A stretch of 64,000 bases of DNA, from contig OZ005692.1 in NCBI GenBank assembly GCA_963930775.1, forward strand, positions 10,521,029 to 10,585,028, written 5' to 3'. A model generated the notes under the pieces. That model had not been told where the DNA came from. It searched no databases and was given only the letters and a program-made list of their open reading frames with translations. Every line of letters starts with the position of its first letter. Positions within the stretch are counted from its first letter, which is position 1. A program made the translations under genes and the position numbers. This DNA is from Cliona cf. orientalis. Its lineage: Eukaryota; Porifera; Demospongiae; Clionaida; Clionaidae. Of this stretch, positions 12,001-64,000 are shown one piece after another.

Positions 12001-15000
12001 GCCGCCCAACGGCTGCAGCTGGCCACCGCGGCTCAGCCACGCCCGCCAATCTGTTTGAAAATCGATCCTCTAGCTTACAACTGGTTAATTAGACTATTAG
12101 CTATCCCGCACGCATGCGCAAGCGGTCAGTTTGTCAGTCTATCTTCGTCATCGTCCGTACGATATGCATACTTGTTAGGCATCTGGGCACAGTGGGTTAT
12201 AACGGCGATCAAATACAACAAAGAAACGGACTCAGCCTCGTTTGGATTCGATCGATACTGGGTACAGGGGCTAAAATGTTTGTTGGTCACTCCTATCAAC
12301 CGCGTGCTTTCTGCCCATGCGCACGCAGTACTAATTTACCAGACCACGCCCACTGCAGCGTTTAAGCGCACGCTTTCGATCTCTGCTAAGCACGAGAACG
12401 ATCACCACTGATAAAGAAAGGGCGGTATACGTCACATAAACCTTTCCCTCTCGATTACCCCCACCGCAGCGTTTAGTTATTAATAATTATTTTTCTGACA
12501 AACACGCGGATGGCTGAATTTCCGAGTAAACGCAATGATCTAGGCCACACCTAACGTTGTCCAGTTAACCATTCGTGAACTGAATATCGATTTTAAAGTT
12601 TTGGCGGGCGCAGCTGAGCTGCGGTGGCCAGCCACAGCCGATGGGCGGCCCTTTGGCGGCCAACAGCAGCTTTCGGGTGGCCCCAACGTGGCTTGGGCCG
12701 CTGTGGCAGTGTCCTTCTCGGCCACCGTAATTACCAACTACAACCTTTGAACTATTGCTCCTGCAAATTTGAAGTCTCTAGCCCGTGTAGTCATGGAGAT
12801 ATGAGCAAACATATACCCGGATAAAGTTTTGCAAAAAATTGCAATGAACATTGCTACGTACGTTGCACGCGGAAGTCCGTATACTCCCAGTTTATGGTAA
12901 ATACGTGGCCCCGCCCACCAAGTCAACATGATGAGCTAGCTGGCTGCCAAAACGCTCGAACGAGAGCAGCAGCCAATGTTTCAATGGAAAAGAACGAGAA
13001 GATAAGCGTTCCTAAAGATCGTTAATACACAAAATTGAAGAAAGAAGTGACTGGAGAGATTTTTCTGTGCAGCTGCCGTGCTTGCCTACCTGCAATTATG
13101 GCAACGGCTCCGTATCATGGCCGCTCTATGTAGCTACTCGCCTGACTTCTTCGAGCCATTACTTGGTAAGTATAGTGTTCTAGAAGCTACGAAGCAGATT
13201 TATGTGTAGAGGAATGATTCCTCTATCAATCTATACCAAAAAGTGAAAATTGATAGTTATCATCACAGGCAACTATTTTGGCCTGTATCTCAGATTGATA
13301 TTCAGCGCATTATGCATGGTTTCTCGTGGACGGTCACATATAGGTTCCCCCTAGGTTTGCATGCATGGATCTACATGTACATGCATGTATATGTTGTGAA
13401 AAAACCTATAGTTATTAATTATACTTCATGTATTATAATATACACTCAATCATTATGGCCATGGTCTTACTGCAATTCCTGAAGATACTTTGTGCTGTTG
13501 AATTCAAGGGCTGGTGATCCGTAGTTCATATCATTAATGACAGTGAAAATAGTGATAATAGCATCACTAAATATCTTAATAGGCCTGTAATTTTTTGTGA
13601 TCAATGGATGATCATATCATTATACTAAGATTATAGTTGTCCGTGTGTGTGTGTACGAGCGGGAGGTGACCGGAAGCGATTCGACCCGAGCTAAAACGTT
13701 TTTATTTCTAGGCATCGCTGGACTTGGGGCGATACAACCGATAGCCCACTGACACGGCTGGCTATGGCCCCAGCGGCAACTAAAGTGAGCTGCTTCAACA
13801 AAACACCAGGGCAAAATTAGATTGAACTGTACCACTTACCATGGCGGCCTGGAGAATACAAAGGGGTGACATTCAGGAGTCAGTGTTGCCCATCGGTGCT
13901 TTCCAGAAGGAGGCGATTCTATTCTAAGCATCTTCACTTGGGAGTCCTTGCGAGCAAAGCTGCAAGACAACTAACGAATTTCTTGAGCTAGCTGATTGAC
14001 AAAGTCACTTGATCAGGCAGGATGTGCACGTGCGCTAGCTTGCTCACGTACGTACGCGCATAAAGATGTAGGTAAAGGTCGTCGATGGCACATGCACAAT
14101 AATATGCAGCACAGAGATAAAGGAGTGAGCGAGCGAAGCGAGCTCACTCCTTGTACATTATAATTTTTCATACCTTAGCTCGTCTAAGCTATCAGTGCAC
14201 ATCCTGAGATAATGAATCACATCTTCACTCAGTATTTGGCCACATATTTTAAAGCTGCATATATTAGATAGCCAGGTGTGTATTATGTATTATATACGTG
14301 CAGCAAAATAAGCTGAACATGTAGTAGTACATACCTAACCAGACAGCCTGGATGTTGGAAGCATAATTTCACTATTTCATAATAAAACCTTTCAGGCACA
14401 TCTAGACTATAGAGTCATTGCGCATGCATGCAGACATCACATATTATACATGGGGTTAAAATTTTTAATTAGTTAACTCTTACTTCAGTGTTACTGTTTT
14501 CTGGGAGCCAACTCTAGCCTTTTCAATATATTCCTGCAGTACTACAACTTCTTTCAACTTTTTAGCTAGTTCTGCAATTCTTGTGAGTCTAGTAAACTGA
14601 GTACCATGGCTATGCGAGATATATCGATGGTCAGTATATAGTGGAAAAATAGAAATAAACTTACACAATGATATCCAAAGAAAGTTGGAGTGCTTTATTG
14701 TCAACAAGACTAAATATAGCATTACATTGATCTTTTGAGGGAAAGTGAGAGCCAGGACAACTGAGCTTAATATCCAATGCAAGAGCACTTCTATTGTTCA
14801 AAAGAGAAGCAATAGCAGGAGCACGTGATATCGCCCATGAAAACCAACCGTCAATTTTAATACAACTATTCCATATCTCTAATATCATGTAATTGTATGG
14901 TGGCTGACTTTGGGACTCATAAGCACATTGCACTAATGTCTGCTTCGACAATTCACGTGATTGATGCATATTTTTAAAGACTTGCATTACTCCTGGAAGT

Positions 15001-18000
15001 TTAAAATTCAACAGTCCACAAAGGAAGCGACAACATACTACAGAAAATACATCAGACTTTAAGTCGATCAATTCTGGAGGGAGTCCAGCCATATAAACAG
15101 CTGCAAGGAATTCTTGAAACGTTAAATGAAGAAAAGTGTAAGTCTCATCAAGCCCAAATCTCATAAAGTAGCGGTCAATAACAACTAGACCAAGACAACT
15201 ATCATCACTTCCTGTACTACCAGATTCAAAGGCTATCTCTCGCAGCTCTGACTGCATGAAGACTTGCTTTTTTGCAACTGTTGCATCATAAGCAAGTTTG
15301 CAGACCTTGTCAAAGATGATCTTATCCTTTGGTGGAAGCTGATCAAATGAAGTCAAACAAGTAGTACCTGGTCCACCTTCTCGTTTGTACTGTGAACGAA
15401 GGAGCATAGATATGGTGAAGTGTTTGTAGAATTCAGTTTCCGTCTGTGGTAAAATAGCAGTCCCATCGTAAAGAAACACAAGCATGGCACAATGTAGAGG
15501 GAGATAGCACATATTCATCAAGTTAGGATGCAGTTCCAAATGCTTCAATAGATCTTCAGCCTTTTGTTGATTATTACAATAGTAGCTTTGAATATAGTGA
15601 ACGACATGTTTCTTTAAAAAGCCTACCACTTCTATTTGTTTGTCAGCGTATCGACGGAAGTCTTGACATGCTGCAGGGCGAGAGCTCACCACAATGAGTG
15701 CATCACGTAAAAAATTACGGGAATCATTCATCAGACTGAGGACAATATCATCATGGCTAATGGGAGAATACTCATCAAATCCATCAAAAATAAAAACTAC
15801 ATTCTTTCCGTCTATTTTTTGAATAGCACGCTCCAAAGAAGTAATTTCATCTGGTTTTAAAGGCGGGCATGCAACTTGAATGAGGGTGGCTAAGGTACGC
15901 TCATGAAATGCATTCAGTCGTCGCAGTGGAATGAGAAACAGGAGTGTTGAATCCAGAAACAGATTATTTGCCCAATCTTGACTTATTTTGGTCATGAGTG
16001 TAGTTTTTCCACTCCCTGGTCGACCTTGAAATAGAACAAACTTAAGTTTGGTGAGATCATCAAAGATTTGGTGATATGTGATGCCTTCTTTCTTTCCAAC
16101 TATCTCATCCATTGATTCCTGGACAGTTTGACGCCAACTTGTGTGGTCTTTGATGAGCGCTAAGTTTATGAAGTTGGTAACCTTGACAGGTGGCCAGGCT
16201 TGGTCATCAATTTGTCGCAAGTAAAAGTTAGCGAGAGTTTGATGGTACTCGAATTTGCCTATCAGAAGGAAAACCAATTGAAACATGTCCTATATACTGT
16301 GGGACGGGTTTTAATTGCGTAGTTTATTAATTTCAAGTCAGGCCAAATTACGAATCCAATAATTGCGATGGATGACCCCATACTGTACTGTAGTATACGT
16401 GCACATTTATGTTTGCGAATGTATTAATTGCGAAATGTAGAAAAACTCGCAGTTCACAATTAATAGATATTTGCAATTAAAACCCGACCTACGGTATATT
16501 AATTTATGGCTAATTAGCTAACTTTCATTCTGTGGTGGGTTTTGCTGCCAATTTCCAACAGCTCCTTCAAACTGACGAGTGCCAGCACCCCTCCCTCGGC
16601 CACACCCTCGTGCTCCATGGTCATATCCTGCCAGCCGTTGACCACGCCCACGTCCTCTCCCACGTCCATACCCACATGCAGACTCACTTGAGGTAACTTT
16701 AATAATACAGGGACAATAAATTTACGATTCATCTTATTACTGGCATAATTACATTATCATACTTACCTGTAGCTACAGGATGATGTTGAGCGATAATTTT
16801 TGCTAGTCTATGATCATTGGCACCAGCTGGGTCGTCAATTGCCTCCACCAGTTTACGCCACGTGGGAGTGCCGAACCGCTCCACGTTGTACCTTTGACGC
16901 AACCATACGCACACTACGTCGTTTAGTTGTTGTTCGTGATCTTGCAGGCTTGATCGAATTGAATCAAGTTCACCCATTCGTAAACCCAGAGTGCGACCTA
17001 TTGCCAAGGATCGCGCTTTTACCGTAATGATCTCTGATATGACATCACGCAAGTCATCCTCTCCTATAATTAATTATTAGCAAATTCTTTACATACATAT
17101 GTGACCCGCCATATGGGATTTTTTGTGAAAGTTGAGTTTGATACATCTATGATAAGCTCTACCATAGAGATAACTCGCGTTCAAGTTCTAGACTGATCAT
17201 GCGCTTCGTTGTGGAGATACAGCGCTTTGTTTGCGATCGCGCCACACCCTCAATATTCGAGAAATTATGGTCCAAAGGCGTTGCTATGCACGCGTATGGC
17301 ATTTCCGCATACTACGCGTGACCCGGAAATCAATTAAATGAACCTGGGCGGAGCCGTTCGAAATGAACGTAAAGATCGAGCTAGAGTTGAATTTCGTTGT
17401 TGACAATGACAGCCGATTGTTCTTAGATGCCCAAGAAGCTAAAAAGGTGAGTGAACGTACAGTAGTTTGATGAATCTAGCTGTATCTAGGAAGAGAATTC
17501 TAATTAGCGCCCATAGCAACGGGCTCCGTGTACGGCAGCTGTACAGACTAGGTAGGTCAAAATGAAGGCTCATTTTGCCTTTGTAACTTACGGTTAGCCT
17601 CCGTAGACGACGGCAAAGGTTAGCAGAAAGGTTCTTTGGCATAAATATGTCAAAAACTCAACTTTGACATTTCTTGACTTGAGGTACTAAAAACGCGCAT
17701 TGCGCGAATAGCACGCGGATCCCATATGCCGGGTTTTTCCGTAGACGGTCACATATTATAAGGCCACTCCAAATCAATTAGTTGTTTCTCATCCCCCTTG
17801 ATTTCCACCCGCATGTATTTCCATCAGCACCAGCACAATACAAAAGTATACCGCCTCGATTTTTTGGATTGCTGAACTTATGATTTTGACGACCATTTCC
17901 CATCAAACTTGTGATTAAACGACCATTTCCAGCCGCCCGCCTGCATCAGTTTTTTGGCTCAGGGGTGATGAAAAACAATGAATTAATTTGGAGTGGCCTA

Positions 18001-39688: not shown

Positions 39689-40742
<1,054 letters not shown>

Positions 40743-41319
40743 TAGGTCACTATTCTAATATTCAAGATTAATAATTGTTTCTCCCTCCAATGATGATAAG
40801 CATCACATTATATCAACCCCACTGACACATTCAACATCGTCTGATCCTAACGATATTGATTGATGCATGGAGCTAAAAGCATGGACTGTGCAATGATTTT
40901 GATAGCAGAATGCTTCAATCGTGATTTCCAGAAGTCATCGATATCATCAAGAGTACTCATGGTACTCTTGATATCATTCAGTGATTTACAGAGTAGCTAT
41001 GCTGCTGAGCAATAGTGGTATAATAACGATATGCGTACGAAGCTGACTCATCGATCACACGTTTACGGTTTGCTGGGAAAATGTTAGAACGATTTGGTGG
41101 ATTCAGCTTTCCTATGCCACCACCGTTCTTCCTGTTCAATATCCAGTATAGTATAGTATACGCATAGTTTACAAACAATCAATTGACGCATCTTTACGCG
41201 AAAACACGTCATCGCTAAAATTCATAGTGCGGTTTCCGCGTATCGGCGATGTTCCACGATCACCACAAGCCACCCAGAACTGTTCTAGCATAAAAGGGAG
41301 AGCCTGAAACAACGAATTT

Positions 41320-41510
41320 ATCGCTTCTCGGCCTTTTGGCTAAGATCAAGTAGAAATAACTGTTCTTTAGAGTTTAATAGCTCTAACGGGGGCATAGCCC
41401 CCAAGCTATTAATTCAATTTTTGCGAATCGGGACGAGGAATGAAGCTTGCTTCGCCCGCCCCACGGGTTGCCCTGGTATTGCAGTACCTCCAGGTGCGGC
41501 CCACTCCCCT
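41320..41510 (+). ncRNA. U2 snRNA-like gene with altered branch-site segment
   Basis: The 5' part ATCGCTTCTCGGCCTTTTGG plus CTAAGATCAAG is identical to U2 across animals and covers stem I and the U6-pairing segment. Stem-loop IIa (TTAGAG-TTTAATAG-CTCTAA) and IIb (GGGGGC-AT-AGCCCCC) differ from human U2 but keep pairing. The loop TTAATA and its downstream complement TATTAA are both kept. An Sm-like AATTTTTG, a stem III with GAAGCTTGCTTC and stem IV CCTGGTATTGCAGTACCTCCAGG follow. The branch-site pairing segment, normally AAGTGTAGTATCTGTTC, instead reads AAGTAGAAATAACTGTTC. A TATA-like CATAAAAG lies about 31 bases upstream, and a CCCC-T6-GGGG hairpin follows the 3' end. It lies alone between NTPCR paralog 2 and a methyltransferase gene. 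Confidence 0.88.
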
Positions 41511-48553: not shown

Positions 48554-54376
<5,823 letters not shown>

Positions 54377-55164: not shown

Positions 55165-58100
55165 ATGATGGAAATTCGCATCAGATTTTCATCTTGTTTT
55201 GTGCACGTGGTAGTACTAGTGCTACTCTTTTTTGGCAGTAGAGAAGTTCTCTGTCACAGTGGAGCAGCTGAAAAAATAGTATTCAATGTTACTTGTGATC
55301 CAAACTTCAATGGGACAATATGTCATGGAGACTCATTGGAAGAAATAGTGGATGAAGCTAAGAAGAAAATGATTTCTGATTTGGAAATACGTATCAAGAT
55401 CCCTCAGCTACAGCTGAATAAAACCCTGAATTTTACTAATCTCAGGTCTCTAATCATCAGAGGTGAAGATGAATTGGGTATGACAAATTTAATCTGCACT
55501 CAGACTCATGCATATGGCTCTCAAGCTGGCATTGTGATAAATGGCACAAAAGAGAGGGTGCTCCTGCAAAATTTAAATCTGAGTTTCTGTGGAGTAAAAA
55601 TTAACAACACGTTTGGTAAGAGCATTTCAAAATTTTAGAGCTCTTACAATCGATCAGTGCAAGAATGTTGAACTCAAAAACATTGTCGTAGAGAGAAGCA
55701 AAGGACTTGGGCTAGTAATGAACAGCAATCAGGGAGGTCACGTGATCATGACATCAATCCTTTTTCAGGGAAATAGCATGTACAACCTGCGGGGTGTTGG
55801 TGATAAAGCATTTGGAGGTGGCGGGGCATATATCACTTTGGGTCGTTCTCCTGCGAATCAGTCTGCACTATTTCTATTTCGAAACTGCACTTTCAAGAAT
55901 AACACTGCTCATACCAAGAACTACACATTTGTCATGAACCTACGAAGTGGCTATGGGCGTGGTGGTGGCCTCTATTTCTACATCGGTGATGGTCTTAAAA
56001 ATATATTCGTATCTTTCATTGCGTGCAAGTTCATTTCTAACCGTGCATTTATTGGTGGTGGTTTGTCCGTAAATATTCAGAGTAGGCGTGGACATGTAAC
56101 GCAAAACATCACAGTCAAGATTGTTGATACTCTTTTCCAATGGAATGGATATGGAGGAAAGAACAACTCCGACAATCATACAGGATTAGGAGGTGGACTT
56201 CATGTCGCCTTCAATCGATTGGATAGTGTGGGTAACATATCAAACACGAGCTATCACCTACAAAATGTCAGTTTCAGCAATAACTATGCTGAACTAGGAG
56301 GGGCTGTATTCTACTTCTCGTATCGTGAAAACCAGGAAAAGTTCAGCAATGCAAATTCCATGCGTTTTGATAATTGCACATTCATCTCAAATCGAGCACA
56401 CATGGGATCAGCGGTTGCCATGATACCATATGTTTTTCAAAAGCTCTCAAATGGATTTATTATAGTTCCCAAATTTCTTGATTGCACCTTTTCAAGAAAC
56501 GCTGTTTTCGTAAAGAGTTCCTTTGAACACCGAATAGGTGGCATTGGCACAATATATACTAGCTTTTATGATATTCATTTTGAAGGAAGAAACAGTTTTC
56601 ACAGCAATCATGGTACACCTATACATGCGGTTAATGCAATTATCAACTTCACAAATAGCGATATGTGTTTCCTTAAGAATAGAGGAATCAATGGAGGGGC
56701 CTTGGGCCTCATTGGATCATCAATAGTGATTTTTGGGCCCAAGAGTTACAATTTTACTAATAATTCTGCACTATATCGGGGAGGAGCAGTCTATGTCTCC
56801 TTGATTGACAGCACTGACTTCCTTAGCTCCAGGAGCTGTTTCTTCCAATACCAAGACCAGAGAGGATTTAGAGGATCGTGGAATGCTAGTATCAATTTTA
56901 TTGGAAACAAAGCTAAAGACGAGACAGCTGGCCATGCCATTTATGCTACATCGATTCTACCTTGTCAAGTTGTAAAGCAAATCGATATGAACGAAACTCA
57001 GTACCACTATCTAGTCAATCTTACAAAAATATTTGACGTACGAAATTTCAAATTTGACAGCAGTGCATTTCGACAACCTCAAATAGCCACAGATGGAGCC
57101 AAGCTTTCTAGAAATGAACATTCACCACTGTCAATTATCCCCGGGCAAGAACGCGAGCATGGTGTTGTGATAACAGATGATTTGGGACACAAAGTAAAAG
57201 CATCGTTTAGAGTAAACTCGAACAGATATAATGGAATTATGCTTCAGTCTACGTCAGCATTTATTGGGGAGAAAATTCGACTTAGAGGTACTCCGCCTCG
57301 AAATGGAAGCATATATTTACAGCTTGCGTCTCCAAGACAAAGTTACATTTTATTAGACGTAAAGTTGCTCGACTGCCCTCCTGGATTTAAATTCGATAAT
57401 CAGAGCTCCACGTGTGTCTGTGATGTTGATGTACTTTTGAGTGTGACAAGATGTGATCTGGATACATTTCACAGTTACATTCTTCCTGGTTTCTGGATTG
57501 GAGTAGTGAAAAAATCAAGTGAAGCAAAGCTTGTGACTGGTCGATGTCCATTCTGTGATTATAGCAAACAGAATTTGTCAGCAGTTCCAGAATATGGAAT
57601 TATTTTACCTCAAAACTACTCCGGTTTGAACAAAGCTGTCTGTGGAGATACAAGAACAGGCGTTTTGTGTGGTAAGTGTGAAGATAGCTACACTGTTTAC
57701 TTTCACTCTCCAGGCTTCCTGTGCAAGCCAGCGGAGCCACTTGGATGTAGATTAGGCTGGCTGTTCTACATCCTCTCAGAGTTCGTACCTGTCACTGTGG
57801 TCTTCATTACCGTGCTAGTTTTAAACATCAGCTTCACCTCTGGTGCTATCAATGGCTTCATCCTCTTTAGTCAGTTATTAGATACATTCGATATTGATGC
57901 CAGTGGGATCATATCTTATCCGCAGTCAGCAAAGCATACGATACGAGCCTGGATAAAACGATATCGATTTATCTATGGATTTTTCAACTTGGATTTCTTC
58001 GATTCAGAGTCTCTCTCATTTTGTATGAAGAAAAATGCTTCAGCACTGGACATGTTAGCACTGAAGTATGTCACTATCTTTTACACGTTGCTGCTGATTG

Positions 58101-59143
58101 TGGCCGTCATTTTGACTATGAATAAATGTGGGGGGAGGTGCTGTGGAAGGTTTTGCCGAATCACAACCGTTCGCACTTCAGTAGTGCACGGAATATCCAC
58201 GTTCCTTGTGATTTGTTACACCAAATGTGTCAAAACATCTCTCGACTTACTTATTCCGATATGGTTGGGAAAGAGTGGCTTCACTAGAGTCTGGCTCAAC
58301 GGTGAACTGCTATACTTCAGCACAGGCCACTTGCCCTATGCTTTACCAGCGATATTCTGTCTTCTCACGATAGGGATGCTTCCCCCAGCTCTCCTGCTAG
58401 CGTATCCCCTCGGCAACAAAGTAATGACGTTCTTTGGTTGTGATCAAGTAAAATTTATCGCTTATCTCTCTCAATTTCTCTCTGTTAGCAGCATCAAGCC
58501 TTTGCTTGACTCAATTCAGGGATGCTTCAGGGACAGTATGAGGTTCTTTGCTGGTCTCTATTTCCTCTATCGATGGGTTATTCCTCTCGTACACATCACT
58601 GCTAATGGTTTCAGCACCTATTGCTGTGCTCTTGGTGGTGTCCTACTCTTCATTCTCACACTACACACCATCTGTCAACCGTACACGAAGAAAGCGCACA
58701 ATATCATCGATACTCTGCTCTTTGTGAATTTAATTCTCATCAATTCTCTCTCGTATTTTAATTACTACAAGAGCCACACTCAGTGGGGTATACGTAAGAG
58801 AGCTACCATTTCTCCGGCTATAGTGCAGCTGGTACTGATCTATCTTCCTCTACTAGTAGTCAGTGTATACGTGCTCGCAATTTTCCTCAAGAAATTTGCC
58901 CAATTTCGATGCCACATTTGGTTGGATAAGGTCACAGCTGTCTTTTCTGCTCAAATGAAGGCAAATACGCTAAGAGAGGTGATAGAATCGACAGTGTCAA
59001 TGCTGGATGAAGATTCCAGTAAGATGGAAGAAGATCAGATCCACAATTGGCTCATGGATAGTGAGAGAGATGTCAGCAGCGCACGCTCCGAGTATCATGC
59101 CAGTGATGATTGTGGAGGCAAACCACTTGATACATATATTTGA
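55165..59143 (+). CDS. large beta-helix / multipass membrane protein, paralog 1 (frame break)
   Basis: Starts with a signal peptide (VVVLVLLFFGSREVLC). About 550 residues of Asn/Gly-rich repeats follow (GGGAYITLG, NNTAHT, GGGLYFYIG, SNRAFIGGGL), typical of a right-handed parallel beta-helix. Then comes a Cys-rich stretch (CPPGF, CVCD, CPFCDYS, CGDTRTGVLCGKCEDSYT), about nine hydrophobic segments (from about residue 865) and an acidic tail. The reading frame changes at 55613-55637. The stretch totals 3979 nt, one more than a multiple of three. Either one base is extra in the AAAATTTTAG run, or a 25-base GTAAGA...TTTTAGAG segment is removed; both restore the frame. Elsewhere it matches the convergent paralog at 59434-63381, which is uninterrupted. 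A surface receptor or adhesion role is an inference. Confidence 0.8.
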
Positions 59144-59433: not shown

Positions 59434-62400
59434 TTAATTGTATGTGTCTTCAGGATAGTCTCGATCTTCCACATAGTCGCAAACAGCCCTGAACTCCACG
59501 TCTTCGTCCATTAGCTGGTCATGAGTCAAATCCTCATCGGAACTTTCATTCAGAGAGCTTATGGTCCGTACTAGATCCCTTAATTTCCTCGCTCTTACTG
59601 GAATAAAAAATGACGGCTTGCGATTGCCGAAGCAGCATCCACAGATGTACTTGAGGAAGTAGACAAAAATAAAAACGGTCATTATTAACGCAGGTATGTA
59701 AATGAGCACAGTTTGCATAGCACCTGATCGAATTATGGTGCTATTTGGAATCTTTGGATTATTGCTTCTGTGGAAATTGAGCAGAGAAAGGAAGTTGATG
59801 AGCAGTAAGTTGCATAAGAGGAGGGCGTCGATGATATTGTGTGCTCGCTTGAGGTATGGCTGGCAAACCGTGTGTAGTGTTAGTATGAACACCAATACTC
59901 CCCCTACGACTGTGTAGTGTTCAAAGAACCCCACAGTGCCTATGTGGATGAGCAAGAACATCCACCTATAGAGGAAATAGAGGCCGGCAAAAAATCTCAT
60001 ATCATCTTTGAAACAACCTTGAAAGGAGTCGAGAAAAGGCTTGATACTGCTGATTGATGGTGCTTTCATAACATAAGCAAATACAGTAAACTTTTCCAAG
60101 TCAAGTTTAGCAATTACTTTATTGAGGAGAGGATAAGTCAAGAGCAGTATGGGAGGAATGATCCCAACAGTTAGTAGACAAAGTACTGCTGGAAGAGCAT
60201 ACGGTAGATGTTCTTTGCTGAAGTGAACTACCTCGCCATTCAGCCATACCCTATTCGGGGGTCGAAAGTTCTCATCTTGTGCAGCATAGATGTGCACTTG
60301 AAGGAGAAGGCTTAGGGAGACATTAACACACTGAGAGTAGCCGATCATTAGGAAGCTTGATATTCCATGAACAACTGATGTTTTGATGGTCGTTATCCTA
60401 CAGCATTTGCCTAAGCACCTCCCTCCACACTTATTCATTGTCCAGACAAGAGTGATTATCAGAAGAGCTGTGTAGAGGATTGTGATATACTTCATAGCTA
60501 ACATGTCCAATGCTGAGGCACCTTTCCACAGGCAGAATGAAAGGGACTCCGAGTTGAAATATTCCAGATTAAAAAATCCGTAGAATATCTGGTATCCCTG
60601 TGAGGCATTCCTGAGTGATTGCCGTGGAAACGATATGATTCCACCACCTGTGAGGTCAAAGGAGACTAGCAGCTGACTAAAGAGGATGAAGCCATTGACA
60701 GCTCCGGACGTGAAATTGATGTTCAAAACTAGCACGGTAATGAAGACCACAGTGACAGGTACGAGCTCTGAGAGGATGTAGAAGAGCCAGCCTAACCTAC
60801 ATCCAAGTGGCTCCGCCGGCTTGCACAGGAAGCCTGGAGAGTGAAGGTGAACAGTGTAGCCATCTTCACACTTACCACACACAATGCCTGTTCTCGTGTC
60901 ACCACAGACAGCTTTATCCAACTTAGAACGGTTTCGAGGAAGAATTATATCAGAATGCTCAGCACTGGATTCACTTAGGCTGTAGTCGCAAAAGGGGCAT
61001 ATACTGGTTACTAGTTTTGGTGTATTCCATGAGTCATTTATATACCCTGCCCAGTATCCAGAGATTAGATGACTTCGAAATTTTTCTAGATCGCAATCAA
61101 ACATACCTACATGTGCATTTGTATTGCAAATGCATTGGGATTGATCTTTTAGCTCGAACCCAGGTGGACAGTCCATGACTTCCATATCCAACTGAATAAA
61201 AGTCTGCCTAGCCGATATAAGATTCATGAAAATTATTGCTTTCTGGTTTGGCTTGCCTCTGATGTTGAACTTGTCAGTGATCACAGTAGAAGAGTTGGAT
61301 GCAAGGCTAATGTCTATTGCTTCTCCACCAATTTTTGGAAAGAAGGAAGCCCAAAATGAAGCGTTAATTGTTTGATTCAAATCGTCAGTTACTGTCACAC
61401 TATGTTTGTAGCCTTCCCCAGGGATTATGGCAAGTGGCGTGGACTTATTGCCATGCAGAACAGCTCCATCCGTAGCTATCTGAATCTCACTATCCAAAGA
61501 TCCCTCATCGATTTTGATGCCCCGTACATTAAAAACTTCAGTTGCATTGACGAGCTCATAATGTACCGGTCCAGTAGTGGTAAAATCGTACACTTGCTGA
61601 CATGAATGAAGAGATGTGGCATAAACGGTGTGACCAGCCATTGCATCTTTAGCACGGTTTCCAGTGAACAGTATGGTAGTATTCCAGTCCCGAAAAGTGA
61701 TCAAGTTATTCTCATCGACACACTGAATAAAACACAACTCAGAGCTAAAAAAATCCACATTATTAATCTGTGATACATATATAGCCCCTCCTTTGTAGAT
61801 GGCGGAATTATTAACAAAGTCATAGCGTCTTTGTGATCCTAAAATGACTACAGATGAACCAATGAGGGCTATCGCACCTCCCTGGAGAGCCGTGTTGTTT
61901 AAAAAAAGTGCACCACTGTTTTGGAAATTTACAACTCCGTTGATAACATAAAGGGCAGAGCCATTGTTTTTGGTGAAATTAGTATGTCCATTGAAAACAA
62001 CATGATATGAACTTATGTAGACAGTGCCAGCACCTGGATTGATTTGCAACAATAAATTCTTAGTATCAAAAACAGCATTTCTTGCAAATGAGCAGTTAGA
62101 AAATTTTATCAATGTCGAGAAACCAGTGGATATCCTACGATCTATACTTGGAGCTAAGAAAATGGCAGAACCCATATATGCCTTATTGTCTTCAAATGAG
62201 CAGCTGTGAAATGTGACAGAGCTGTGATCATTACGCCGCTTTCCTGATATGTGGTGCACTCCACCTCCAAGTTTGGCACAGTTTTCTAAAAAGCTAACAT
62301 TCTCGAGACTGTAACTACAGTTTTTGATGTTGTGTGAAGTGGTCCAATAGGAGTCAAATGTGAGGTGTGCTCCACCTCCAAAACCTTGCTTCGTACTTTC

Positions 62401-63381
62401 ATCACAACCATTCCTTTTGAAGACAGTATCTGCTATAGTGACTTGAATTCCTTCTGTTATCTCTGATATACCTCCTTGAATTTGAACAGCCAGACCACTC
62501 CCTAAGAATGCCTGATTGTTGGTGAATGTACAGCCTGAGAATAATACTCCGACATTTCTAACATTGCTGTCAAACACTACATACACCCCTCCACCTCTAC
62601 CATACCCCACGCTTCCTTTTCCGTGAACATCAGTGTAAAGATGATCATAGCGACTTGTGTTTGCCGTGTTATTCTCAAATGTACAATTATGAAAGTGAAG
62701 CAGAAGATTATACTCTGAAATATTATTGTTATTTTTGTGGATCACAACATACACTCCACCACCCCCAAAAACCTGAGGAGAGTCTGATACAGATCTGCTA
62801 GAGTAGTTCCTGTGAAGCACATTTTCTTTAAAGATGGCTGACTCAATATTCACCTCACCTCCTAAATGGTTCACTATCATCAATCCAATTCCTCCACTCC
62901 TCTCTATGCTGATACCAGTTAGCTGCACATTCCTACACTCTATTATTGTTAGTGCTGAAATGTAAGTTTTATTATCAAACCCATTATTGACTTTAGATCC
63001 ACAGAGAGTCAAATTTAAATTACCCAGCTCTACTGATCCATTTATGTTCGTCAGTATAACACCAGCACTAGCATTTTGATTAGGCACACAGATAATATTG
63101 GTCTGTACGTCAAGTTTACCAATGATCGTGAGAGAATTTATACCGGTGATATTGATCATTTCCTTCAGTTGAAGGTGGTCGGTCCTTATGTCAATGTGTA
63201 CGTCATATTCTCCTTCAACGCTGTTGAGAATGCTGCCCAATGTCTCATTTTGACAGCCATTTTGACGGTCACGATCGCACGTTATGGTGTATGACAGAGC
63301 TTTCACTGATACACAGCCATAGACAACTATGATCATAATCATACAAAAACTATTGAGTGCTGGATTACAGTAACTTGCCAT
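59434..63381 (-). CDS. large beta-helix / multipass membrane protein, paralog 2
   Basis: One uninterrupted, apparently intronless frame of 1315 residues. A hydrophobic N-terminus (FCMIMIIVVYGCVSVKA) is followed by a beta-helix ectodomain (FGGGGVYVVI, FENNTANT, YGRGGGVYVVFD, NNQAFLGSGL) with many NxS/T sites. The Cys-rich juxtamembrane block (CPPGFEL, CPFCDYSL, CGDTRTGIVCGKCEDGYT) and CKPAEPLGCRLGWLFYILSE lead into about nine membrane helices (residues about 865-1235). The tail is acidic (SSDEDLTHDQLMDED). The block around CGDTRTG and the first membrane helices is nearly identical to paralog 1, while the ectodomain differs more. Family unrecognised; the build is that of a cell-surface receptor with an adhesion-like ectodomain. 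Confidence 0.88.
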   Translation of the reverse strand: MASYCNPALNSFCMIMIIVVYGCVSVKALSYTITCDRDRQNGCQNETLGSILNSVEGEYDVHIDIRTDHLQLKEMINITGINSLTIIGKLDVQTNIICVPNQNASAGVILTNINGSVELGNLNLTLCGSKVNNGFDNKTYISALTIIECRNVQLTGISIERSGGIGLMIVNHLGGEVNIESAIFKENVLHRNYSSRSVSDSPQVFGGGGVYVVIHKNNNNISEYNLLLHFHNCTFENNTANTSRYDHLYTDVHGKGSVGYGRGGGVYVVFDSNVRNVGVLFSGCTFTNNQAFLGSGLAVQIQGGISEITEGIQVTIADTVFKRNGCDESTKQGFGGGAHLTFDSYWTTSHNIKNCSYSLENVSFLENCAKLGGGVHHISGKRRNDHSSVTFHSCSFEDNKAYMGSAIFLAPSIDRRISTGFSTLIKFSNCSFARNAVFDTKNLLLQINPGAGTVYISSYHVVFNGHTNFTKNNGSALYVINGVVNFQNSGALFLNNTALQGGAIALIGSSVVILGSQRRYDFVNNSAIYKGGAIYVSQINNVDFFSSELCFIQCVDENNLITFRDWNTTILFTGNRAKDAMAGHTVYATSLHSCQQVYDFTTTGPVHYELVNATEVFNVRGIKIDEGSLDSEIQIATDGAVLHGNKSTPLAIIPGEGYKHSVTVTDDLNQTINASFWASFFPKIGGEAIDISLASNSSTVITDKFNIRGKPNQKAIIFMNLISARQTFIQLDMEVMDCPPGFELKDQSQCICNTNAHVGMFDCDLEKFRSHLISGYWAGYINDSWNTPKLVTSICPFCDYSLSESSAEHSDIILPRNRSKLDKAVCGDTRTGIVCGKCEDGYTVHLHSPGFLCKPAEPLGCRLGWLFYILSELVPVTVVFITVLVLNINFTSGAVNGFILFSQLLVSFDLTGGGIISFPRQSLRNASQGYQIFYGFFNLEYFNSESLSFCLWKGASALDMLAMKYITILYTALLIITLVWTMNKCGGRCLGKCCRITTIKTSVVHGISSFLMIGYSQCVNVSLSLLLQVHIYAAQDENFRPPNRVWLNGEVVHFSKEHLPYALPAVLCLLTVGIIPPILLLTYPLLNKVIAKLDLEKFTVFAYVMKAPSISSIKPFLDSFQGCFKDDMRFFAGLYFLYRWMFLLIHIGTVGFFEHYTVVGGVLVFILTLHTVCQPYLKRAHNIIDALLLCNLLLINFLSLLNFHRSNNPKIPNSTIIRSGAMQTVLIYIPALIMTVFIFVYFLKYICGCCFGNRKPSFFIPVRARKLRDLVRTISSLNESSDEDLTHDQLMDEDVEFRAVCDYVEDRDYPEDTYN

Positions 63382-64000
63382 TCCTGATTAATATCGAAGC
63401 ACAGTACGAGCTATAGCTATTAATACTGATCAGATACATATAATATTGACGTGTTAGCTCTTATGAATAATAATATAAAATGCATGTGTATTTGGATCTG
63501 GAGTTGGGGAAAATAAATTTTGTGACTTTGGTGGTTTATCATAACTATCACCTGCAGTAGTGCACTACAGATCTATAGTAGCCACGCGGCTATAATATAT
63601 TCCAGTATTCGACATATTATTGTTGGTTGATCAAATCCAATCACAGTTGTGAAAAACTACCGTTGTTTTGTTTTAAGCAATACTTATATACAACATGATA
63701 CTAGAGTATAATAATCATTGAATATACTAGAGTAAACTCATCACATGTTCTATCAGCTATAGGATACTATGTACTGGGTATGTGACAATTGTGACCAGCT
63801 ATGAGAAAAAGGATCATTAAATTTAGGGAGTTTTTTTTTGTTTGCTATAGTAGCTATGTAGCTCGTTGCATGTATGGAGTAATATACTGTTCATGTAGCT
63901 AATTAATACGCCCTGTACAAACATAGGCTCTATAACTACTCACAACATAATATTATTGTTAAAAGCAATGCAAGCTAATTTGGGCATAGAAATTGAATAC
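63382..64000. other. right flank, nothing recognised
   Basis: AT-rich sequence upstream of paralog 2. It should contain its promoter, but I see no defined element. Confidence 0.5.

What the first reader, a model, noticed from the sequence alone, without database searches (positions are those of the whole stretch)
41320..41510. U2 snRNA-like gene with a rewritten branch-site recognition segment
Seen: stem I and the U6-pairing region match U2 exactly. Stems IIa and IIb differ from human U2 by paired changes that keep the helices, the IIa loop and its downstream complement are kept, and stem IV is intact. Yet GTAGTA, which pairs with the intron branch site and is nearly invariant in eukaryotes, is replaced (AAGTAGAAATAACTG). 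Inferred: compensatory change argues for selection on the RNA, so this may be a functional U2 variant for a different branch-site class. A decaying copy is the alternative.
Basis: partly seen in the sequence, partly recalled or inferred. Interest (0 to 1): 0.85.

Follow-up and report, generated by a model that had tools for sequence, protein, structure and literature searches.

The report
Sponge U2 RNA with rewritten branch-site segment
Every complete U2 spliceosomal RNA gene found in the held genome of the boring sponge Cliona cf. orientalis carries the same rewritten version of the short stretch that normally pairs with the intron branch site, so a part of the splicing machinery regarded as nearly fixed appears to have been replaced in this animal.

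Summary
Window 41320-41509 (+) is a full U2 snRNA (150.5 bits) with GUAGUA replaced: AAGAUCAAGU-AGAAAUAA-CUGUUCUU. The genome is Cliona cf. orientalis odCliOrie1.1 (19 of 19 chromosome lengths match). Of nine U2 matches, eight are complete, in two sub-families, and all eight carry the rewritten segment (one with an extra A); no GUAGUA U2 was found. Window copy against one B copy: 0 of 26 differences in positions 23-48, 43 of 143 after; five stem pairs change on both sides. U2 and U12 genes share promoter-like elements. So this looks like the species' standard, selected U2, neither decaying nor a side variant. A matching new branch-site class is not established: in 96 3' splice sites CTRAY is at chance (15, expected 15.0) and complements of the new segment are at best weakly enriched. 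Best reading: the branch-interacting stem-loop is kept while U2-intron pairing is weak or shifted. Limits: no other sponge, RNA or lariat data; U6 was not found in the held copy, so absence there is not proof.

The parts
41320..41509 (+). U2 snRNA gene, sub-family A copy on chromosome 4
   Evidence: RF00004, 150.5 bits, model 1-192; one of nine whole-genome matches
41326..41345 (+). stem I; its 3' side and the following bases (GCUAAGAUC) form the U6-pairing strand
   Evidence: CM alignment; 7 of 7 pairs unvarying in 8 copies
41342..41367 (+). branch-interacting stem-loop segment AAGAUCAAGUAGAAAUAACUGUUCUU
   Evidence: 0 of 26 differences between the window copy and one B copy; 8 of 8 complete copies, one with an extra A
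41352..41359 (+). rewritten core AGAAAUAA in place of canonical GUAGUAU
   Evidence: sequence; CM alignment
41367..41386 (+). stem-loop IIa, loop UUUAAUAG at 41373-41380
   Evidence: 6 of 6 pairs kept; one A-U to G-C change on both sides between sub-families
41388..41402 (+). stem-loop IIb
   Evidence: 6 of 6 pairs kept; two pairs changed on both sides
41406..41412 (+). IIc strand CUAUUAA, complement of the IIa loop
   Evidence: two of the four B copies have loop GUGUGACAG with CUUGUCACA, the other two CUGGUCACA and CUGUUCAC; the pairing in B was read by eye and needs one bulged base
41416..41423 (+). Sm-like site AAUUUUUG
   Evidence: sequence; unvarying in 8 copies
41430..41462 (+). stem-loop III
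   Evidence: CM alignment; outer helix 84.4% of cells paired (one pair never standard, one A-C in the window copy), inner helix 100%
41465..41502 (+). stem-loop IV
   Evidence: 94.8% of cells paired, two pairs changed on both sides
41262..41269 (+). PSE-like element ACCACAAG, 51-58 bases upstream (the name PSE is by analogy)
   Evidence: ACCACAAG lies about 50-58 bases upstream of both U12 genes; CCACAAG in 3 of 4 A copies and CCACAAA in the fourth; B copies have CCACAAG, CCACGAG, CCCCGAG or CCAAACG
41290..41297 (+). TATA-like box ATAAAAGG, 23-30 bases upstream
   Evidence: ATAAAAGG in 4 of 4 A copies; TATAAAGGG in three and TATATAGGG in one of 4 B copies; TATAAGAG in both U12 genes

Best explanation
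The locus is one of at least eight intact genes for the standard (major) U2 snRNA of Cliona cf. orientalis. In the ancestor of both U2 sub-families the branch-point recognition sequence was replaced by AGAAAUAA; the change is fixed in the copies found and looks to be under purifying selection. Shown: sequence, copy number in the held genome, near-invariance of the segment, compensatory changes around it, shared promoter-like elements, and that the branch-interacting stem-loop can still form on paper (AAGA:UCUU, CA:UG, GU:AC, 7-base loop). Inferred: the stem-loop still loads onto SF3b in the usual way, and the branch helix forms with weak pairing, most likely GUAG at U2 31-34 with CUA(A)C-like sites two bases nearer the U6 helix, or with changed or mismatched pairs in the old register, the branch adenosine being chosen mainly by the pyrimidine tract/U2AF, SF1 and the SF3b pocket. 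The sampled introns have pyrimidine-rich 3' ends but no clear branch-site consensus, which fits low dependence on U2-intron complementarity.
For: U2 identity. Nine whole-genome matches, from 46 scored of 9028 candidates, eight complete, all eight with the new segment. A pattern with a free 4-20 base middle finds these 8 genes plus 3 unrelated repeats and no GUGUAGUAUCUG. Segment 0 of 26 differences (window copy against one B copy) against 43 of 143 after it and 2 of 22 before it. Cells with changes on both sides 19 against a shuffled mean of 8.5, 0 of 500 as high; 95.7% of cells paired against 38.6-51.9% when slid. Window copy against two other A copies: gene 97-98% identical, flanks 0.50-0.54 where shuffled upstream flanks give 0.50-0.52. 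Promoter-like elements shared with U12 genes. Stem-loop energy -1.2 against -0.8 kcal/mol for the canonical segment. CT[AG]A[CT] in 15 of 96 3' intron regions, shuffled mean 15.0. PMC7969005 passages mention poor correlation of branch use with U2 complementarity and optional pairing, in other organisms.
Against: No RNA evidence. The isolated stem-loop folds no better than shuffles (z 0.26; canonical 0.25). The canonical-register complement scored above shuffles in introns (z 2.9, upstream 0.4) and above the shifted new register (z 1.4, upstream 1.6), and the EM motif search found a weak ACTA-containing motif above six null runs: either would fit a hidden canonical U2 or SF1-imposed ACUAA. Registers 35 and 36 of the new segment reached z 2.1 and 2.8 and TTTTCA[CT] z 3.2 and 2.1 in two intron sets, which would fit re-targeting. 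U6 core is absent from the held copy, so some sequence must be missing or withheld there. Two of five measures do not favour the structure: pairs changed on both sides (188 of 500 shuffles as high) and further pair types (500 of 500).
Confidence: 0.56

Rival explanations
1. Re-targeted U2: branch sites co-evolved, so introns carry sequences complementary to the new segment (AUUUCUAAC in the shifted register, UAUUUAC or AUUUCAU in others).
For: TTTCA[CT] 10 of 96 against 4.9 expected, z 2.7, upstream 0 of 45; in a narrower window TTTTCA[CT] 5 of 96 against 1.4 (z 3.2) and, in an ab initio set, 3 of 113 against 1.1 (z 2.1). TTCTAA[CT] 3 of 96 against 0.9. Registers 35 and 36 of the new segment z 2.1 and 2.8. 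Single introns match (TTATTCTAACAT in L082, ATTTCTACG in L113). Odds raised from 0.15 to 0.18 on re-reading.
Against: TATTTCT and TTATTTC 0 of 96 (expected about 1 each). ATTTCA 1 and 2 against 1.8 and 1.5. Registers 31, 33 and 34 of the new U2 gave z 1.4, -1.0 and 0.4. Many patterns and registers were tried, and parts of U2 shared by both forms reach z 5.0-5.5. The EM motif is not a complement of the new segment.
Confidence: 0.18
2. A canonical GUAGUA U2 exists but is withheld, unassembled or on an unheld small scaffold, and the eight altered genes are a paralogous U2 class.
For: U6, which must exist, was not found in the held copy by CM or pattern; 149 contigs are held against 307 scaffolds in the genome note; weak canonical-register signal in introns (z 2.9) and a weak ACTA-containing EM motif.
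Against: A U2 lacking its first 50 bases still scores 84.2 bits and a 3' remainder from model position 84 scores 69, against 77.5 for the pseudogene that was found, so withholding only a human-like 5' half should not hide it, provided the search's first look picks it up. A human-like 18S block of 35 bases is readable.
Confidence: 0.2
3. Decaying pseudogene copy.
For: None specific; a damaged copy exists at C6:4043306-4043486, lacking 10 bases of the segment and with a disrupted 3' end.
Against: Same segment in eight complete copies, compensatory changes, promoter-like elements.
Confidence: 0.02
4. Origin by copying from U12: the new segment resembles the U12 branch arm (U2 AAGUAG-AAAUAAC, U12 AAGGA-AAAUAAC).
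For: Local alignment score 24 against 14 for the canonical U2 segment; random middles reach 24 with P 0.001.
Against: Shuffled middles of the same composition reach it with P 0.14; gaps are needed; the comparison was made after seeing both sequences.
Confidence: 0.05

Closest known systems
Canonical major-spliceosome U2 snRNA (Rfam RF00004)
   Same: Stems, U6-pairing strand, Sm-like site, IIa-loop/IIc complement; 150.5 bits
   Different: GUAGUA replaced by AGAAAUAA with one extra base; in sub-family B the IIa loop and IIc strand are also rewritten together
Trypanosomatid U2 snRNA
   Same: GUAGUA replaced: UUAUAA in Leishmania major (PMC4950102, passages); trypanosome branch sites described as not conserved in a way that suggests extensive pairing with U2 (PMC6698659, passages)
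   Different: Different replacement and lineage, trans-splicing organism; the Leishmania paper also reports an unusual Sm site, here the Sm-like site is ordinary
Diplomonad U2 snRNAs (Spironucleus)
   Same: Divergent U2 (PMC6679479, passages)
   Different: There stem IV appears missing and a branch-pairing sequence that bulges the adenosine is reported; here stem IV is present and the branch-pairing sequence is changed
U12 snRNA of the same genome (RF00007)
   Same: Similar A-rich arm AAAUAAC near the branch-pairing bases; similar promoter-like elements
   Different: Separate genes, two copies with GAGUAAGGAAAAUAAC

Membership tests
U2 snRNA (RF00004) | covariance-model score above the curated cut-off | tested here: met
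   150.5 bits against 46, full length
U2 snRNA (RF00004) | stem I and U6-pairing strand | tested here: met
   7 of 7 pairs in 8 copies
U2 snRNA (RF00004) | stems IIa and IIb, IIa loop complementary to IIc | tested here: met
   12 of 12 pairs kept, three changed on both sides; loop complement present in both sub-families, in B with a bulged base, read by eye
U2 snRNA (RF00004) | Sm site and stem-loops III and IV | tested here: met
   AAUUUUUG; helices 84.4-100% of cells paired, with one pair of III never standard
U2 snRNA (RF00004) | branch-pairing sequence GUAGUA (usual, but not universal: Leishmania has UUAUAA) | tested here: not met
   AGAAAUAA in 8 of 8 complete copies; because an accepted U2 RNA lacks GUAGUA too, it is not taken as family-defining
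U2 snRNA (RF00004) | expressed, assembled in U2 snRNP and active in splicing | not testable with these tools
   no RNA data held
U12 snRNA (RF00007) | best match to the U12 model | tested here: not met
   The window gene's match is U2; where families of one clan overlap only the best is shown; two separate U12 genes exist
Pseudogene | loss of structure or promoter, unconstrained changes | tested here: not met

The most novel reading that the evidence does not exclude
An animal whose only major U2 snRNA has lost GUAGUA and recognises branch sites in a new register, or with little base-pairing, through co-adapted SF3b/SF1 proteins; possibly a clade-wide trait in sponges.
Probability: 0.4. Interest if true: 0.88.

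Novelty: new variant of a known kind. Interest (0 to 1): 0.72.

Why it matters
GUAGUA is treated as close to invariant and the branch helix as a core of splicing. An animal with all recoverable U2 genes altered at that spot gives a natural test of how much U2-intron base-pairing metazoan splicing needs, and whether SF3b, SF1 and the branch register can co-evolve. The nearest precedent found here is in trypanosomatids. If other sponges share it, the change could be dated and intermediate states found.

Tried and rejected
Relatives: a scan of genome contigs for AAGATCAAGTAGN{2,8}CTGTTCTT gave 3 hits, all short chance-like matches without U2 around them, and a scan of viral contigs for any U2 of this shape gave 0. 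No other eukaryote genome could be searched. Literature searches on the subject (one search was malformed; one search was for the species) listed no report of an animal or sponge U2 without GUAGUA; the library is open-access only, most hits were seen as listings, and the nine papers opened were read as passages.

Introns: ab initio gene finding on 264 kb (somewhat more, which added the stretches around the U2 genes) was noisy; its first setting over-predicted badly. Homology-anchored 3' splice sites: 145 exon hits of Cpn60/TCP1 (57) and myosin (88); stretches of 111 bases were fetched for 131 of 145; 86 of 131 passed the acceptor filter, plus 10 picked by eye in two window genes = 96. The filter asks for a pyrimidine-rich site, so it favours strong tracts. 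Of the 96, 9 were dropped before the EM search, leaving 87; real data had 60 starts and the null runs 20, so the EM comparison leans towards the real data. No positive control from another animal could be run. GCTAA (8 of 96 against 2.1, z 4.4) was set aside as one of many k-mers tried. The register scan gave high z for CU^GUUCUU (5.0-5.5) in a part of U2 that is the same in both forms; unexplained, not used.

U6: RF00026 0 matches (the tool says inconclusive), exact 20-mer 0, 32-mer with up to 3 mismatches 0, 16-mer core 37 hits with one mismatch and none exact. Taken as missing or withheld, not as true loss, because the U6-pairing strand of U2 is intact.

Full report
What is there. The window's only Rfam match at gathering level is U2 at 41320-41509 (+), 150.5 bits, full model length. 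Reading along it: stem I and the U6-pairing strand are intact, then AAGAUCAAGU is followed by AGAAAUAA and CUGUUCUU, where the model consensus has GUAGUAU (human sequence recalled). IIa, IIb, IIc complement, Sm-like site, III and IV follow; III has two non-standard pairs in this copy.

Where it is. The window is on chromosome 4. The held copy has 149 contigs and 216.8 Mb, the published one 307 scaffolds and 217.17 Mb.

All U2 genes found. RF00004 over the whole held genome gave nine matches at E up to 0.001, from 46 scored of 9028 candidates. Eight are complete: four of sub-family A (two in tandem and one more on C13, the window on C4) and four of B (two in tandem and one more on C17, one on C18). 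All eight carry AGAAAUAA; the C18 copy has one further A. The ninth (C6) lacks 10 bases of the segment and has a disrupted 3' end. A pattern with a free middle found the same eight, three unrelated 35-base repeats on C1, and no canonical form.

Selection. One A and one B gene are 76% identical. Taking the window copy and one B copy, differences are 2 of 22 in positions 1-22, 0 of 26 in 23-48, and 43 of 143 after that. Five helix pairs are changed on both sides between sub-families with pairing kept, 19 cells in all against a shuffled mean of 8.5 (0 of 500 as high); the covariation score and the share of paired cells also exceed every shuffle, but the count of such pairs alone is reached by 188 of 500 shuffles and the number of further pair types by 500 of 500. 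The IIa loop, UUUAAUAG in A, is UGUGACAG in B, and the downstream strand changes with it (CUAUUAA; in B CUUGUCACA twice, CUGGUCACA, CUGUUCAC). That pairing was read by eye and needs one bulged base in B. Window copy against two other A copies: gene 97-98% identical, flanks 0.50-0.54, where shuffled upstream flanks give 0.50-0.52. About 50-58 bases upstream A copies have CCACAAG (3 of 4) or CCACAAA, B copies CCACAAG, CCACGAG, CCCCGAG or CCAAACG, both U12 genes ACCACAAG; TATA-like boxes lie about 23-31 bases upstream of the U2 copies and, as TATAAGAG, at a similar distance from both U12 genes. One U2 copy (C13:8557294-8557483) lies between exon hits of a myosin gene on the same strand, so contamination by a symbiont is unlikely.

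Stem-loop. The branch-interacting stem-loop of human U2 pairs G25:C45, A26:U44, U27:U43 and upwards (assembled from passages of PMC13167188, partly by inference). The new segment folds with the same outer helix, GU:AC pairs and a 7-base loop, -1.2 against -0.8 kcal/mol for the canonical segment; neither is better than shuffles in isolation. So the hairpin can be kept; the loop letters are new.

Introns. Exon hits of two protein families and two window genes (read by eye as RCOR- and NTPCR-like, names recalled) gave 96 3' splice sites: 86 of 131 fetched stretches and 10 from the window. Pyrimidine rises from 54-58% upstream of -30 to 76% at -15 to -3. CT[AG]A[CT] occurs in 15 of 96 regions from -58 to -12, shuffled mean 15.0, sd 3.1. 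By arithmetic, an excess in only 15% of introns would have given about 27, z near 4. For the complements: the canonical register reaches z 2.9, the shifted new register 1.4, new registers 33 and 34 -1.0 and 0.4, 35 and 36 2.1 and 2.8, while parts of U2 shared by both forms reach 5.0-5.5. TATTTCT and TTATTTC occur in 0 of 96. TTTTCA[CT], which a kept register could pair in part, shows z 3.2 (5 of 96) and 2.1 (3 of 113 ab initio introns): small numbers, many patterns tried. An EM search found a weak ACTA-containing motif, log-likelihood 28.7 against 18.4-23.1 in six null runs that had fewer starts, with its best sites mostly 38-60 bases upstream; if anything it resembles canonical ACUAA.

Other snRNAs. 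U1 has eight full-length matches, U12 two with the usual branch arm. U6 was not found by four searches. As the U6-pairing strand of U2 is intact, the likely reason is withheld or missing sequence, which limits every claim of absence. A U2 gene whose 5' half was withheld should still have been seen if the first look picked it up (84.2 bits without the first 50 bases, 69 bits from position 84 on).

Reading. Functional U2: near certain by inference from sequence. Standard U2 of the species: likely. Mechanism: inferred only; the most economical view is that SF3b loading of the stem-loop is kept and U2-intron pairing has become weak or shifted, while introns rely on the pyrimidine tract and proteins. 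That CTRAY is the usual animal branch consensus is recalled, not tested here.

Comparison. Leishmania major U2 has UUAUAA in place of GUAGUA (PMC4950102, passages) and is still U2, so the family name stands. No report of an animal U2 with this change was listed.

Noticed in passing
L005, L006, L007, L008 (C17, C18): A second U2 sub-family in which the IIa loop is rewritten (GUGUGACAG) together with its IIc partner, with a changed stem I loop (UAAU in three, UAUU in one).
   Followed up: partly
G000 (whole genome): No U6 core found by CM or pattern; withheld, unassembled or unheld in this copy.
   Followed up: partly
C13:8557294-8557483 (L003): A U2 gene lies between exon hits of a myosin gene on the same strand.
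   Followed up: no
C6:4043306-4043486 (L009): Damaged U2 copy of sub-family B type lacking 10 bases of the branch segment and with a disrupted 3' end.
   Followed up: partly
window 53760-53890, 40040-40155 and several fetched introns: Long CT dinucleotide repeats stand directly before 3' splice sites, apparently as pyrimidine tract.
   Followed up: no
window 55598-59143 (+) and 59434-63387 (-): Two large open frames on opposite strands with the same weak domain matches (PMP-like repeats, DUF7630).
   Followed up: no
window 14661-16289 (-): NACHT-domain open frame, NLR-like.
   Followed up: no
C13:2849553 and C9:6554087: Only two 18S-like loci by a 35-base block with up to 2 mismatches, one exact and one with a mismatch.
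   Followed up: no
C10:8081635-8081718 (L145): A run of N just before a myosin exon hit; assembly gap or withheld stretch, not told apart.
   Followed up: no
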